From NCBI GenBank assembly GCA_013335115.1, contig JAAXWQ010000002.1, forward strand, positions 248,001 to 312,000: a stretch of DNA of 64,000 nt, in the 5' to 3' direction. Shown one piece after another: positions 9,860 to 14,261 of this stretch. The notes under the pieces were generated by a model that saw nothing but the letters and a program-made list of their open reading frames with translations, was not told the DNA's origin and ran no database searches. The stretch is from Chlorobiaceae bacterium (GTDB lineage Bacteria; Bacteroidota; Chlorobiia; Chlorobiales; Chlorobiaceae). Within the stretch, counting starts at the first letter, position 1. Each line of letters starts with the position of its first letter. The position numbers were made by a program, and so were the translations under genes.

Positions 9860-10723
9860 ATGGAATACCAGCAGGTTAAAGAAGCAATCCTCGAATACGC
9901 ATCGCTCGGCGCCGACCAGCTCAAGGCCGATCCGAAGGCCCGTGAGCTCTTCGGGAGTTTCAAGGCACTCCTCAACAAGGGTGTGGTCCGCGCGGCCGAA
10001 CCCGACTCGTCGGGAAGCGGCTGGAAAGTCAACCAATGGGTCAAGCAGGGCATCCTGGTGGGTATGCGGCTCGGCGTGCTCGTCGAGGGGCGGGTCGACG
10101 CCGGCAGTGTCGGCAGTTTTCCCTTCATCGACAAGGATACCTACCCGCTCCGCCGGTTCAGTGTCGGGGACAACGTCCGTATCGTGCCCGGTGGCTCATC
10201 GGTGCGCGATGGCGCCTGGCTTGCCCCCTCGGTGGTCATGATGCCCCCCTCTTACGTCAATGTCGGCGGTTGGGTCGATGAAGGAACCATGATCGATTCA
10301 CACGCACTGGTCGGCAGCTGTGCCCAGGTCGGTAAAAAGGTGCACCTTTCGGCAGGCGTCCAGGTCGGCGGCGTGCTCGAACCGATCGGCGCCATGCCGG
10401 TCATCATCGAGGACGAGGTCATGGTCGGCGGCAACTGCGGCATCTACGAAGGGACGATCGTCAGGAGGCGTTCTGTGATCGGGACCGGCGTCATCCTGAA
10501 CGGGTCCACTCCGGTCTACGACCTGGTCAACGGTACGATCCTGAGGAAAACGGCCGAATCCCCGCTCATCATCCCCGAAGGGGCGGTCGTGGTCGCGGGC
10601 TCCCGCAAGGTGAAGGGTGACTTCGCGGCCGAACACGGGCTTTCCATCTACACCCCGCTCATCGTCAAGTACCGCGACGATCGGACCGACAGCGCCACGG
10701 CGCTTGAAAGCGCACTCAGGTAA
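9860..10723 (+). CDS. dapD: 2,3,4,5-tetrahydropyridine-2,6-dicarboxylate N-succinyltransferase
   Basis: Transfers succinyl from succinyl-CoA to tetrahydrodipicolinate in the succinylase branch of diaminopimelate and lysine synthesis. The 287-residue protein shows the DapD pattern: helical N-terminus, then left-handed beta-helix hexapeptide repeats with [34 protein letters not shown] and [32 protein letters not shown]. Its stop codon shares one base with the start of the protease gene (TAATG), so the two are translationally coupled. The length is normal. DapH-type acetyltransferases differ in the N-terminal part, so DapD is preferred. Confidence 0.92.
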
Positions 10724-12435
10724 TGACAGTCATCCGCCTCAACCTCATCCCCGTTCGGCTCCGGGGGCTCACCGCGGCGGCACTTGCCGCCGCGGCCATG
10801 TTCACCGGTATGCCCGCAGTCCATGCCGCCGCGGCCGTGCCTGCCAAGCCCGACTGGTTTGCCGCAGGACGGAGCATCGAGCTGCTCGGTGAGGTCTACC
10901 GCGAGGTGGCGGAGAACTATGTCGATCCCGTCGATGTCAGCGAGCTCATGGCTGCCGGTATCGACGGCATGCTTGAAAAACTCGACCCCTACACGGACTT
11001 CCTCGACGAATCGGGGACCCAGGAGCTCGATGAGCTTACGACCGGCCATTATGCGGGCATCGGGATCACGATCAGCATCATTTCCGGTGATCTTTGCATC
11101 ACCTCGGTCATTGAAGGCAACGCGGCATCGAAGGCCGGCCTGCTCATTGGCGACCGGATCGTCTCGGTCAACGGCGTCCGGGTCCGTAACCGTTCCATCG
11201 ACGATGTCCGTGCGGCAATCAAGGGTGCCGTCGGATCGAACGTCAGGCTCGGCATCGAACGACCCGGCAGGCGCGGGAGTCGCGAGTACCTGCTCAGGCG
11301 CGCGGAGGTCAGGGTCGACACCGTGGGCTATGCGGGCCTGTTCGGCGCCATCGGTTACATCGGCATGAACAGCTTCGCGGAGCACTCGTGCGACGAACTT
11401 CGTGGCGCCCTGCAGTCCCTCCTGCAGCAGGCGGCGGCCGGCAACGGCCCACTGAAGGGCATCGTGCTCGACCTCAGGGGGAATCCAGGCGGGCTGCTCA
11501 ATGCTGCCGTCGACGTGGCCGCTGTTTTCCTGGAAAAGGGCAGCAAGGTTGTCTCGACCATCGGAAGGGGAGCGGAAAACAGCCAGGTGTACCTGACCGG
11601 CACCGAGCCGCTTGTCCCCTTGCTCCCGTTTGCCGTACTTATCGACGGTGACAGCGCTTCCGCATCGGAAATCGTTGCCGGGGCCATCCAGGAGCACGAT
11701 CGGGGCCTCATCATCGGCGAGGTTTCGTTCGGCAAGGGGCTTGTCCAGTCGATCGTCAACCTGCCCTACGACCATGTCCTCAAGCTGACGACATCAAAGT
11801 ACCATACCCCGTCGGGAAGGCTCATCCAGAAGCCGTTGCCGCATCAGGAAGGCGGTCGCAAGGTTGTCATCGGCCCGTCGGGCGTCGATTCGACCAGGGC
11901 CTACTACACCGACCGGCACCGTAAGGTCTTCGGTGGCGGCGGGATCAGGCCGGATGTCATCGTCCGCGCCACGGAGCATTCTGCATACGAACACGCCCTG
12001 GACCGGAAAGGGCTCTTCTTCAAGTATGCCAGCCGCTACCGGGCAAGCCATGACCGGGCGGACGTGCAGGACCTGCAGCAGGGGCGGCTGCTGGCCGATT
12101 TCGGCCGCTTTGTCGACAGTGAGCGCTTTACCTACAGGTCACGTTCGCAACAGACCCTTGACAGCCTGAAGGTGATCATCAGAAAGGAGTACGGGCGGGA
12201 TGGCGACGGGCTCGCTTTGCGGCTCGGCGATCTTGAAAAGGAGTTGACGGCGAAGTCATCGAAAGGCTTGGCCGGGGACTCTGTCCGCGTCGCGACGGCC
12301 GTCAGGCAGGAGCTGCTCCGCCATTTTGACGAGAAGCGTGCCCGCAAGGCAGCAATCGAAGCGGACCCCGTCGCCGCGAAAGCCTTCTCCCTGCTCTCCG
12401 ACCCTGCAGCCTACCGGTCATTGCTGGGGAGGTGA
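10723..12435 (+). CDS. Carboxyl-terminal processing peptidase (S41 family, CtpA/Prc-like)
   Basis: A serine protease of the cell envelope that trims or degrades proteins from their C-terminus. The 570-residue protein has a signal peptide (hydrophobic to about residue 38, AVHAAAAVPA), a tail-binding N-terminal part (DPYTDFLDESG), a PDZ domain near residues 105-175 (GIGITISIISGDLCITSVIEGNAASKAGLLIGDRIVSVNG), and the S41 core. The core has GIVLDLRGNPGGLL, the nucleophile serine in GDSASASEIVAGAIQ near 310, and the lysine of SFGKGLVQS near 337. It starts within the dapD stop codon. It is convergent with the minus-strand membrane protein gene, and a hairpin spans the junction. Confidence 0.93.
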   Translation: MTVIRLNLIPVRLRGLTAAALAAAAMFTGMPAVHAAAAVPAKPDWFAAGRSIELLGEVYREVAENYVDPVDVSELMAAGIDGMLEKLDPYTDFLDESGTQELDELTTGHYAGIGITISIISGDLCITSVIEGNAASKAGLLIGDRIVSVNGVRVRNRSIDDVRAAIKGAVGSNVRLGIERPGRRGSREYLLRRAEVRVDTVGYAGLFGAIGYIGMNSFAEHSCDELRGALQSLLQQAAAGNGPLKGIVLDLRGNPGGLLNAAVDVAAVFLEKGSKVVSTIGRGAENSQVYLTGTEPLVPLLPFAVLIDGDSASASEIVAGAIQEHDRGLIIGEVSFGKGLVQSIVNLPYDHVLKLTTSKYHTPSGRLIQKPLPHQEGGRKVVIGPSGVDSTRAYYTDRHRKVFGGGGIRPDVIVRATEHSAYEHALDRKGLFFKYASRYRASHDRADVQDLQQGRLLADFGRFVDSERFTYRSRSQQTLDSLKVIIRKEYGRDGDGLALRLGDLEKELTAKSSKGLAGDSVRVATAVRQELLRHFDEKRARKAAIEADPVAAKAFSLLSDPAAYRSLLGR

Positions 12436-12481
12436 GACGAATCGGGTCGTCACGCGTTACGCGTTACTACCCGATTCGTCT
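12435..12481. terminator. Hairpin terminator shared by convergent genes, inside coding sequence
   Basis: Perfect 13-bp stem (12435-12447 with 12469-12481). The 21-nt loop itself carries two head-to-tail copies of a 7-mer (ACGCGTT). The left arm begins at the protease stop codon, and the right arm encodes the last residues of the minus-strand membrane protein. Confidence 0.65.
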
Positions 12482-13121
12482 GCTGGTGGATGCCGAGCAC
12501 GATCATCAGGTTGCTCACGCTCAGCAGGCTTTCGGCGAGCCCGTGTAGCAGGTCGTCGTGCGAGAGCGTCGGATAGCCGCGCACTTCGGTGGCCAGGTAC
12601 ATGCAGAAGATGGTCACCGAGATGAACACCAGCACGAACCAGAACCCGCCGACGGTCAGCGCCGAGAAGACCTCGGGATCCTTTTTTCTCACCTTCAGCA
12701 GCAGGACCAGGAACGCCAGGTACACGACGCTCGAGACCTGCAGGATGGCATCGAACACGTTGTTGCCCATCCAGGACTGCGGGCGGCCGCTGACGACGAG
12801 GCCGCAGAACAGCGCCCCCATGATGCCCGGCGCCAAGGGCTTGCCGCGCCTGAGGATAGATATCGTGGCGTAGAGGAGCGAGATGCTTCCGAACAGGTTC
12901 ACCAGTTCGGACATGTCGAGCATGAGGGGGATGCGGTCCCCGGAGATGTGGTAGCCGAGCACGAACCAGCTTCCGATCCAGTGCGGGATCATCAGGAGCG
13001 CAAACCGCTGCACGTCCCGGCGTCCGATGAGCCCGCCGTAGCGGTAGAGCATCGCGACGGCCACGCCCCACTCCAGGGATGAAAAGAGGTGGACCACCCA
13101 GTTGAGGGGCGACAGCAGCAT
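12450..13121 (-). CDS. Multi-spanning membrane protein, apparent DUF2499-DUF3593 fusion
   Basis: 223 residues with about six hydrophobic membrane segments. The first half (LSPLNWVVHLFSSLEWGVAVAMLYRYGG, then a ...YHISGD... and an NLFGSISLLYATI segment) resembles the small DUF2499 family. The second half (GGFWFVLVFISVTIFCMYLATEV, then DDLLHGLAESLLSVSNLMIVLG) resembles DUF3593. I know both from cyanobacteria and plastid-bearing eukaryotes as separate proteins. That match is from memory of family patterns, not a search. The start ATG directly abuts the TGA of the geranylgeranyl reductase gene (TGAATG on the minus strand), so translation is coupled. Function unknown; a membrane partner in chlorophyll or quinone tail metabolism is a guess from context. 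Confidence 0.7.
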   Translation of the reverse strand: MLLSPLNWVVHLFSSLEWGVAVAMLYRYGGLIGRRDVQRFALLMIPHWIGSWFVLGYHISGDRIPLMLDMSELVNLFGSISLLYATISILRRGKPLAPGIMGALFCGLVVSGRPQSWMGNNVFDAILQVSSVVYLAFLVLLLKVRKKDPEVFSALTVGGFWFVLVFISVTIFCMYLATEVRGYPTLSHDDLLHGLAESLLSVSNLMIVLGIHQQTNRVVTRNA

Positions 13122-14261
13122 TCAGCTCCCCTTTGCCATGTGGTAGATGTTCTTGGCCATGATCTTCATTTGCACGCTCCATGGCGCAGGAACCATCTTC
13201 TTGTACAGGTAGGAGTCGAAGGTGATCCCCTGGACGTCCCGGTCCTCGCAGATCGCTACGAAGCTTTCCCGAAGGCGGTCGTTGCGGTAGTAGACCGATT
13301 GCAGCGCCTGAAGGCCGAAGAAGATTGGCGCGTAGAGGCTGCGGAACTTCTGTTCGTAAGCCTGGAGTGGTTTCTGGTAGCGGATCCTGTCGATCATCGC
13401 CTGGGCGCCGAGCTTGCCTGAGCGCATGGCGAAGAAGATGCCTTCGCCATTGGCCGGTGTCACCAGACCCGCGGCGTCGCCGACCAGGATGGCCCGATCC
13501 TGGCTGAAGGAGCGTCGCGGCTTCATCGGGATCTTCGCCGCCTCATCCATGTAGGGTGTTTCGGTGATGCCGATCTTCTCCACGAACCGCCGCTGCAACT
13601 GTTTCACGTTGTGCCGGTTTTCCTCGGTGCCGGTCCCGATGGCGATGTGGTCGGCCTTGGGGAATATCCAGCCGTAGAAGTCCGGAGAGACCTCCCCGTC
13701 GAACCAGATCTCCACCAGATCCTCGTATGGCTTCAGCGCGTCGGCGTAGTGGAAGCGCTGCTGCATGGCGATCACTTTCAGGTCGTTCTTCGGAAATCCG
13801 AGCTCGTCGGCGGTTTTCGAATTCGCCCCGTCGGCGCCGATGACGTAGGATGCCACCACCGGAGGAAGGTCCCTGGAGAGGTGGAGGGTGAACCGGTCGG
13901 CCGAGCGGTCGATCTTTTTTACGAGGGCTTCGGTGACGGTTGCCCCCGCCCTGGACGCCTCGTTACGCAGCCAGCTGTCGAACCGTTCCCTGCGCACCAT
14001 GCCGACGTAGCCGTTCGGCATGCGCATCGAAATGGTCCGCCCTTTCGGGGATCGCACGCTCATCTTCGACAGCTTTTTTTCGACCAGTTGGTCGGGGATG
14101 GAGAACTCCTCGATCAGCCCCAGGGGGATTGCCCCTCCGCACGGCTTGACGTTGGAGAGGTTCCTCTCGATGAGGATGGTCGACAGGCCGGCCTTCGCCA
14201 ACATGGCGGCAGCCACGGCACCTGAAGGGCCTCCCCCTATGACAGCGACATCGTAACGCAT
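13122..14261 (-). CDS. bchP: Geranylgeranyl reductase family protein (BchP/ChlP type)
   Basis: FAD-dependent reductase of the family that saturates three double bonds of the geranylgeranyl group on (bacterio)chlorophyll or its diphosphate. The 379-residue protein has the N-terminal Rossmann motif [19 protein letters not shown], the family signature KPCGGAIP near residue 40, VIGADGANS in the middle, and the FAD motif [26 protein letters not shown]. In green sulfur bacteria this family could act on chlorophyll a, bacteriochlorophyll a or menaquinone tails, so the substrate is inferred. The gene runs directly into the DUF2499-DUF3593-like gene. It lies 28 bp downstream of glyQS on the same strand. 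Confidence 0.85.

What the first reader, a model, noticed from the sequence alone, without database searches (positions are those of the whole stretch)
12450..14261. Fusion of DUF2499-like and DUF3593-like domains coupled to geranylgeranyl reductase
The 223-residue membrane protein reads as two small families of oxygenic phototrophs joined in one chain. Its ATG directly follows the TGA of the reductase gene. A fusion suggests the two families work together, and the coupling suggests the work concerns prenyl-tail reduction in chlorophyll or quinone synthesis. This would extend a so far unexplained pair to anoxygenic phototrophs. Domain matches are from memory of consensus patterns.
Basis: partly seen in the sequence, partly recalled or inferred. 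Interest (0 to 1): 0.75.

Follow-up and report, generated by a model that had tools for sequence, protein, structure and literature searches.

The report
Fused phototroph membrane protein beside bchP
In a green sulfur bacterium, two small membrane proteins of unknown function that are separate in cyanobacteria form one chain made together with a chlorophyll-tail reductase; the two parts almost always occur together, so they probably form one working unit of photosynthesis whose exact task is still open.

Summary
The 223-residue protein (12450-13121, minus) matches DUF2499 (84.6 bits) and DUF3593 (102.9 bits), far above Pfam cut-offs; its ATG directly follows the TGA of a BchP-type reductase (544 bits). 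The two families belong together: of 244 cyanobacterial genomes drawn, all 110 with DUF2499 also have DUF3593, adjacent in 82 and apart in 28. Fused forms occur in Chlorobiales, Chloracidobacterium-type Acidobacteriota and some Chromatiaceae. AlphaFold gives confident helical bundles of seven main helices; near-invariant H11, E17, H58, D190, H193, E197 are inferred to share one membrane face. In cyanobacteria the pair follows chlorophyll synthesis (107 of 108 ChlP-positive genomes). The prenyl-tail reading is weaker: bchP coupling is nearly fixed only in family f1 (82 of 83), with no pair within 10 kb on one contig in 107 cyanobacteria or 23 Chromatiales; 50 of 73 BchP-positive Chromatiales lack DUF3593; green sulfur bchP genes restore phytylation in Rhodobacter, incompletely (PMC6166724 passages). 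Best reading: a two-part membrane protein of the late (bacterio)chlorophyll or photosystem-building branch with a His/carboxylate pocket. Reaction and ligand are not shown.

The parts
12450..13121 (-). DUF2499-DUF3593 fusion gene, 223 aa
12861..13115 (-). DUF2499 (Ycf49-type) half, residues 3-87; predicted helices 5-31, 35-42, 45-59, 65-91; invariant S4, H11, E17, W18, P46, H58 (59 of 59 rows each)
12753..12860 (-). linker, residues 88-123, with a short fourth helix (98-109) of lower confidence and a low-confidence stretch (111-116); no counterpart in the split cyanobacterial genes
12477..12752 (-). DUF3593 half, residues 124-215; predicted helices 120-147, 154-180, 190-222; conserved F137, G159, F166, D190, H193, E197, N204, G210
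13119..13124 (-). TGAATG junction: stop of bchP directly followed by the start of the fusion gene
13122..14261 (-). bchP, geranylgeranyl reductase of (bacterio)chlorophyll synthesis, 379 aa
   Evidence: TIGR02023 544 bits
12435..12481 (.). 23-nt inverted repeat (91% complementary, 1 nt between arms) over the 3' end of the fusion gene, between convergent genes; terminator-like or palindromic element
   Evidence: single copy in the window

Best explanation
The gene encodes a single-chain version of a two-subunit membrane protein of phototrophs. The DUF2499 half gives helices 1-3 and the DUF3593 half helices 5-7 of one helical bundle; in cyanobacteria two separate proteins of about 100 residues probably pair to make the same bundle without helix 4. 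Conserved H11 and E17 (helix 1), H58 (end of helix 2) and D190, H193 and E197 (start of helix 7) come together on one membrane face and bind a metal or a pigment/prenyl ligand. The unit works in the membrane-bound end of (bacterio)chlorophyll synthesis or its hand-over to photosynthetic proteins; in green sulfur bacteria it is translated together with BchP so that tail-finished pigment is made and handled at one place. Shown: the two domains, their co-occurrence, the coupling in Chlorobiales, occurrence in phototroph groups in the genomes searched. Predicted: the fold. Inferred: heterodimer, pocket, ligand, role in pigment handling.
For: Both domains far over cut-off. Cyanobacteria, 244 genomes drawn: 110 of 110 DUF2499 genomes have DUF3593, genes adjacent in 82 and apart in 28; 107 of 108 ChlP-positive genomes have the pair; 3 of 110 pair-positive genomes lack a ChlP hit over cut-off. 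In G555 DUF3593 and ChlP both carry stops; G591 has a broken DUF3593 and no ChlP over cut-off. Order of the window: 93 of 98, and 0 of the other 296 genomes drawn from the phylum. Fused in Acidobacteriota and Chromatiaceae. The pair lies beside or near pigment, photosystem or isoprenoid genes in several unrelated places: bchP (Chlorobi), bchE with psbA near (Pseudanabaena plasmid), bchE (Oculatella), psaK and dxs (small-genome cyanobacteria), chlD (one Gloeobacterales contig). The three cyanobacterial genomes seen with a second pair (G394, G395, G469) all hold bchE. Models: mean pLDDT 91.7 and 90.7. Residues conserved across four lineages.
Against: No biochemical datum. The profile fits any protein needed for phototrophy, not pigment handling in particular. 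The recurrent cyanobacterial neighbours that I identified are mostly not pigment genes (csaB, hisA), and most neighbours, including those in Chromatiaceae, were not identified. None of the 12 bchE-positive genomes among the 244 has its pair beside bchE (coordinates). 50 of 73 BchP-positive Chromatiales do without it. The S. elongatus control rings for DUF2499 but not DUF3593, and G495 has ChlP without the pair. Model coordinates could not be read, so the pocket is inferred from helix boundaries.
Confidence: 0.35

Rival explanations
1. One reading: a dedicated membrane partner of BchP/ChlP that anchors the reductase or steers prenyl-tail reduction, as LIL3 is thought to do for ChlP in plants.
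For: Directly downstream of bchP in 82 of 83 f1 genomes and in 3 of 10 other members of the order; 39 of 47 scored loci have a 0 or -1 nt gap. Heterologous green sulfur BchP gave incomplete reduction in Rhodobacter (PMC6166724, passages). Plant LIL3 interacts with ChlP and POR (PMC9066304, passages).
Against: No linkage in Chromatiales (0 of 23) or cyanobacteria (0 of 107) within 10 kb on one contig, nor a BchP-like ORF in the three Acidobacteriota loci. 50 of 73 BchP-positive Chromatiales have no DUF3593. Green sulfur BchP works without it in Rhodobacter.
Confidence: 0.2
2. A membrane metal-dependent hydrolase that works like CREST enzymes (alkaline ceramidase, PAQR, Per1), acting on a lipid or prenyl ester of the photosynthetic membrane.
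For: Both models match human alkaline ceramidase ACER3 (Z 10.4, rmsd 4.3, 189 aligned; Z 11.0, rmsd 5.5, 217 aligned). The invariant His at the end of helix 2 and H-x3-E at the start of helix 7 sit where CREST has SxxxH and HxxxH (motifs from passages of PMC3146951; residues).
Against: GPCR chains score as high or higher, and Z is below the level that means much for helical bundles. The motif Ser is missing, the second helix-7 His is Glu, and profile comparison with ten HlyIII proteins gives probability 0.15.
Confidence: 0.15
3. An assembly factor for photosystems, mainly of type I reaction centres, with the bchP coupling a Chlorobi accident.
For: The carriers Cyanobacteria, Chlorobi and Chloracidobacterium have type I centres (recalled); a psaK-type gene lies among the nearest genes in 11 of 20 small-genome loci (one cluster member was identified); duplicated pairs lie near psbA.
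Against: Chromatiaceae carry it but have no type I centre (recalled). Conserved acidic and His residues suggest a ligand site rather than a scaffold.
Confidence: 0.2

Closest known systems
Ycf49 / DUF2499 (PF10693), plastid ycf49 and plant YCF49-like AT4G22830 (PMC4603697, PMC3999925, PMC13358223, passages read)
   Same: N-terminal half is a clear member (84.6 bits)
   Different: a separate protein of about 100 residues in cyanobacteria and some plastids; here fused to DUF3593 and coupled to bchP
DUF3593 (PF12159), cyanobacterial
   Same: C-terminal half is a clear member (102.9 bits)
   Different: fused; has HDD..LHG where the cyanobacterial rows mostly have VDWLHG
Thalassiosira pseudonana protein 38514 (table line in PMC3478156)
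   Same: both DUFs in one protein with several TM domains
   Different: eukaryotic; sequence not compared; the table names DUF3593 first
CREST superfamily (ACER3, PAQR, HlyIII)
   Same: seven-helix arrangement; His at the end of helix 2 and at the start of helix 7
   Different: SxxxH and HxxxH motifs not met; no profile similarity to HlyIII
LIL3 as partner of ChlP in plants (PMC9066304, passages)
   Same: membrane protein tied to geranylgeranyl reductase
   Different: LIL3 is a light-harvesting-like protein; no resemblance was tested

Membership tests
DUF2499 (PF10693) | profile match over gathering score | tested here: met
   84.6 vs 22.1 bits, profile 2-88 of 89
DUF3593 (PF12159) | profile match over gathering score | tested here: met
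   102.9 vs 25 bits, profile 2-87 of 88
BchP-ChlP (TIGR02023), the upstream gene | score over curated cut-off | tested here: met
   544.1 vs 343.3 bits; below the ChlP equivalog cut-off (329.1 vs 505.3)
CREST superfamily | seven core helices | tested here: inconclusive
   both models show seven main helices plus short ones, but helix 4 of the window protein has only 12 residues and lower confidence; it is long in the Acidobacteriota model
CREST superfamily | SxxxH at end of helix 2 | tested here: not met
   H58 in 59 of 59 rows, but residue 54 of the window protein is Val
CREST superfamily | HxxxH at start of helix 7 | tested here: not met
   H193-x3-E197: Glu in 61 of 61 rows
CREST superfamily | sequence-profile similarity to a member family | tested here: not met
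   hhalign vs 10 HlyIII proteins probability 0.15; only HlyIII was tried
CREST superfamily | bound Zn and hydrolase activity | not testable with these tools
   needs protein
7TM GPCR/rhodopsin-like fold | structural match well above the background of helical bundles | tested here: inconclusive
   best Z 12.3 and 12.9, no Foldseek E <= 0.001
BchP partner protein | conserved linkage to bchP/chlP across carriers | tested here: not met
   seen in Chlorobiales only; 0 of 107 cyanobacteria and 0 of 23 Chromatiales within 10 kb on one contig; contig breaks hide some cases
BchP partner protein | physical interaction or pigment phenotype | not testable with these tools
   needs mutant

The most novel reading that the evidence does not exclude
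DUF2499 and DUF3593 are the two halves of one overlooked membrane enzyme or pigment carrier with a His/carboxylate site, shared by nearly all chlorophyll-making cyanobacteria and Chlorobiales sampled and present in two further groups of anoxygenic phototrophs; it carries out a missing late step (finishing, checking or handing over of prenylated chlorophyll).
Probability: 0.25. Interest if true: 0.82.

Novelty: new variant of a known kind. Interest (0 to 1): 0.55.

Why it matters
Two unexplained small families of oxygenic phototrophs turn out to be near-obligate partners (110 of 110 in the cyanobacteria sampled), joined in one chain in three anoxygenic lineages. That turns two 'unknowns' into one unit with a structural model, six candidate site residues, a genetically tractable host in each camp (Synechocystis and Chlorobaculum tepidum) and a direct pigment read-out.

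Tried and rejected
Internal duplication (DUF2499 and DUF3593 as repeats of each other): hhalign of the halves gave probability 1.1, so no sequence relationship was found. CREST membership: two motifs and the HlyIII profile not met. Solved relatives by sequence: none at E <= 10. Weak Pfam hits shared by a few members (Peptidase_U4 in 10, DUF2244 in 9, DUF6962 in 5 of 71; best E 0.00024, 0.034, 0.019) were taken as TM noise and not pursued. True co-loss of bchP and the fusion gene in the five genomes of the order that lack both: of the three f1 genomes, two have no match to the neighbouring ctp gene better than 36% identity and one has only a fragment at a contig edge besides paralogues, so an assembly gap is likelier; the two f3 genomes stay open. 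A general bchE link: 12 of 244 cyanobacteria have bchE over cut-off and none has its pair beside it; the bchE adjacency was seen only in Pseudanabaena and Oculatella. Phage carriage: no match. The palindrome as a repeated element: single in the window; the rest of the genome was not searched for it. Lycopene cyclase, SWEET and rhodopsin families were not compared by profile; no SWEET or lycopene-cyclase entry stood among the printed PDB rows, which excludes nothing. The genome-contig scan kept the best 80 of 133 relatives, so absence from other phyla (Chloroflexota, heliobacteria, Gemmatimonadota) and from Alphaproteobacteria is not established.

Full report
What is there. The ORF at 12450-13121 (minus) encodes 223 residues. 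Pfam finds DUF2499 at residues 3-87 and DUF3593 at 124-215, both several times over the gathering score. The gene upstream, 13122-14261, is a BchP-type geranylgeranyl reductase (TIGR02023, 544 bits). The stop of bchP and the start of the fusion gene touch (TGAATG). The fusion gene ends against the convergent S41 peptidase gene (10723-12435), with a 23-nt inverted repeat over its last codons.

How conserved is the coupling. In the order (98 genomes) 93 have DUF3593; the other 296 genomes drawn from the phylum have none. All 98 hit the BchP model and 91 pass its cut-off; the seven that do not are the five without DUF3593 and two with BchP fragments. The fusion gene lies directly downstream of bchP in 82 of 83 family-f1 genomes (the exception, G153, has it at a contig edge) and in 3 of 10 genomes of families f2-f4; one more has it 5.4 kb away and six have it elsewhere. 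In the f2 genome G087 the same genes stand in the same order (glyS-like, bchP, fusion, ctp-, dapD- and rng-like; labels by eye), with one gene inserted between bchP and the fusion and others between glyS and bchP, so the linkage looks old in the order. Of 58 distinct Chlorobi-type proteins my script recognised the bchP tail upstream of 47; 39 have a gap of 0 or -1 nt and 8 a gap of 31-86 nt.

The two families belong together. A tblastn search found a Pseudanabaena plasmid with DUF2499 and DUF3593 as neighbouring separate genes, followed by bchE. A scan of genome contigs kept the best 80 of 133 relatives: 34 cyanobacterial loci, three Acidobacteriota (two titled Chloracidobacterium, one Blastocatellia), eight that I group as Chromatiaceae (one is titled only Gammaproteobacteria), and 35 Chlorobi. 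In 244 cyanobacterial genomes DUF2499 occurs in 110 and DUF3593 in 114; every DUF2499 genome has DUF3593. The four DUF3593-only genomes are G555, G591 and G632, whose frames carry stops, and G615. Genes are adjacent in 82 and apart in 28 of the 110. The control S. elongatus rings for DUF2499 only. A FastTree tree of 112 thinned pairs or fusions, midpoint-rooted, splits cyanobacterial pairs (support 1.0) from fused proteins (0.95), with Chlorobi (0.985) and Chromatiaceae (0.998) each one clade and the two Acidobacteriota proteins beside them. This fits one fusion or one splitting; the direction is not known.

Link to chlorophyll. In the same 244 genomes ChlP passes its cut-off in 108; 107 of them have the pair, the exception being G495. 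Three of the 110 pair-positive genomes (G403, G473, G567) have no ChlP over cut-off. This is what any protein needed for oxygenic phototrophy would show, so it does not single out tail reduction; and in none of the 107 genomes are ChlP and either half within 10 kb on one contig (58 can be compared on one contig; closest 74 kb). In Chromatiales (195 genomes) 24 have DUF3593, two of them as partial hits, and 73 have BchP over cut-off; 23 of the 24 are BchP-positive and 50 BchP-positive genomes lack DUF3593. In none of the 23 are both within 10 kb on one contig (six can be compared on one contig; closest 52 kb).

Neighbours elsewhere. Among 54 cyanobacterial loci (some the same place fetched twice) a hisA-type gene is near the pair in 18 and a csaB-type gene in 17; among 20 loci of small-genome cyanobacteria a psaK-type gene is near in 11, dxs in 14 and csaB in 7, and a GGR-superfamily gene in 4 (cluster counts; one member of each cluster identified). 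Four of the 20, and one of the 54, gave no DUF call in that script. One Gloeobacterales contig has chlD directly upstream of DUF3593. Second-type pairs form their own clade (0.989): Pseudanabaena, beside bchE and near psbA; a further Pseudanabaena and Oculatella, beside bchE, the latter near feoB; Scytolyngbya, near psbA and an ArsR-type regulator. The three cyanobacterial genomes in which I saw two pairs (G394, G395, G469) all hold bchE, while bchE passes cut-off in only 12 of the 244 genomes and is not beside the pair in any of them. PMC4500134 (passages read) finds bchE in two of 37 cyanobacterial species. The second pairs look like part of a low-oxygen cassette; that is inference.

Structure. 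AlphaFold2 on a 71-row alignment gave mean pLDDT 91.7; a second model, of an Acidobacteriota protein (L082), gave 90.7. Both are bundles of seven main helices, 1-3 from DUF2499, a fourth from the linker (short and of lower confidence in the window protein), 5-7 from DUF3593. Foldseek found no PDB match at E <= 0.001; the highest VIA-align Z values go to a class C GPCR (12.3 and 12.9), with ACER3 at 10.4 and 11.0. Such Z values may mean only a shared arrangement. Across Chlorobi, Chromatiaceae, Acidobacteriota and cyanobacteria H11, E17, W18, P46 and H58 are invariant (59 of 59), E197 61 of 61, H193 60 of 62 and D190 60 of 64; the misses include tails of DUF2499-only rows that the aligner placed there (by eye) and one Chlorobi row with Asn at 190. 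From helix boundaries the six charged or His residues H11, E17, H58, D190, H193 and E197 fall at one membrane face on helices 1, 2 and 7; I could not read coordinates, so this is inference. The arrangement resembles CREST hydrolases (PMC3146951 passages), but the CREST motifs are not met and HlyIII profiles do not match.

Literature. DUF2499 or DUF3593 occurs in three held papers and the search for ycf49 lists eight, nine papers in all; I read passages of seven. In one of these (PMC6015050) the passages shown hold Ycf4 followed by a citation number, not ycf49. None gives a function. PMC3478156 lists a diatom protein with both DUFs, so the combination is on record. PMC13358223 lists a YCF49-like gene with a substitution outside its main domain among six candidates in a soybean chlorosis locus; this is weak but points the same way. 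Searches for AT4G22830 and for sll0608, AT1G64355 (recalled as a DUF3593 gene), IPR021995, PF12159 and PF10693 gave nothing functional in what was shown; one passage was read. PMC6166724 (passages): green sulfur bchP genes in a Rhodobacter sphaeroides bchP mutant restored phytylated BChl a, with incomplete conversion. PMC9066304: passages only.

Verdict. The prenyl-tail interpretation is possible for Chlorobi but is weakened by the wider distribution. The best reading is a two-part membrane protein of the late chlorophyll or photosystem-building branch with a His/carboxylate ligand site; this is testable but not shown.

Noticed in passing
L031 7992-13257, L048, L049, L050, L052: A second type of DUF2499-DUF3593 pair sits beside bchE (Pseudanabaena, Oculatella) or near psbA and an ArsR-type regulator (Scytolyngbya): probably a low-oxygen photosynthesis cassette.
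   Followed up: partly
L175-L192 (small-genome cyanobacteria): Recurrent order DUF2499-DUF3593-psaK with dxs on the other strand, in a few loci with a GGR-superfamily flavoprotein gene near.
   Followed up: partly
G555 and G591 (cyanobacterial phylum): DUF3593 is broken by stops; in G555 ChlP is broken too, and G591 has no ChlP over cut-off.
   Followed up: no
window 12435-12481: 23-nt inverted repeat with 1 nt between the arms, one arm encoding the last residues of the fusion protein, between convergent genes.
   Followed up: partly
L164, L165, L167-L169 (G737, G738): Two Chromatiales genomes hold two and three copies of the fusion gene; in three of the five loci the same two genes (one 5'-nucleotidase-like by eye) follow.
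   Followed up: no
Synechococcus elongatus control: Rings for DUF2499 but not DUF3593, the one DUF2499 carrier without DUF3593 seen here.
   Followed up: no
L035 and L041 (family f3 of the order) versus L054, L056, L063 and others: The fusion gene lies beside hisA- and hisH-like genes (by eye) in some genomes of the order, and the split pair is near hisA in many cyanobacteria; chance or old linkage is unclear.
   Followed up: no
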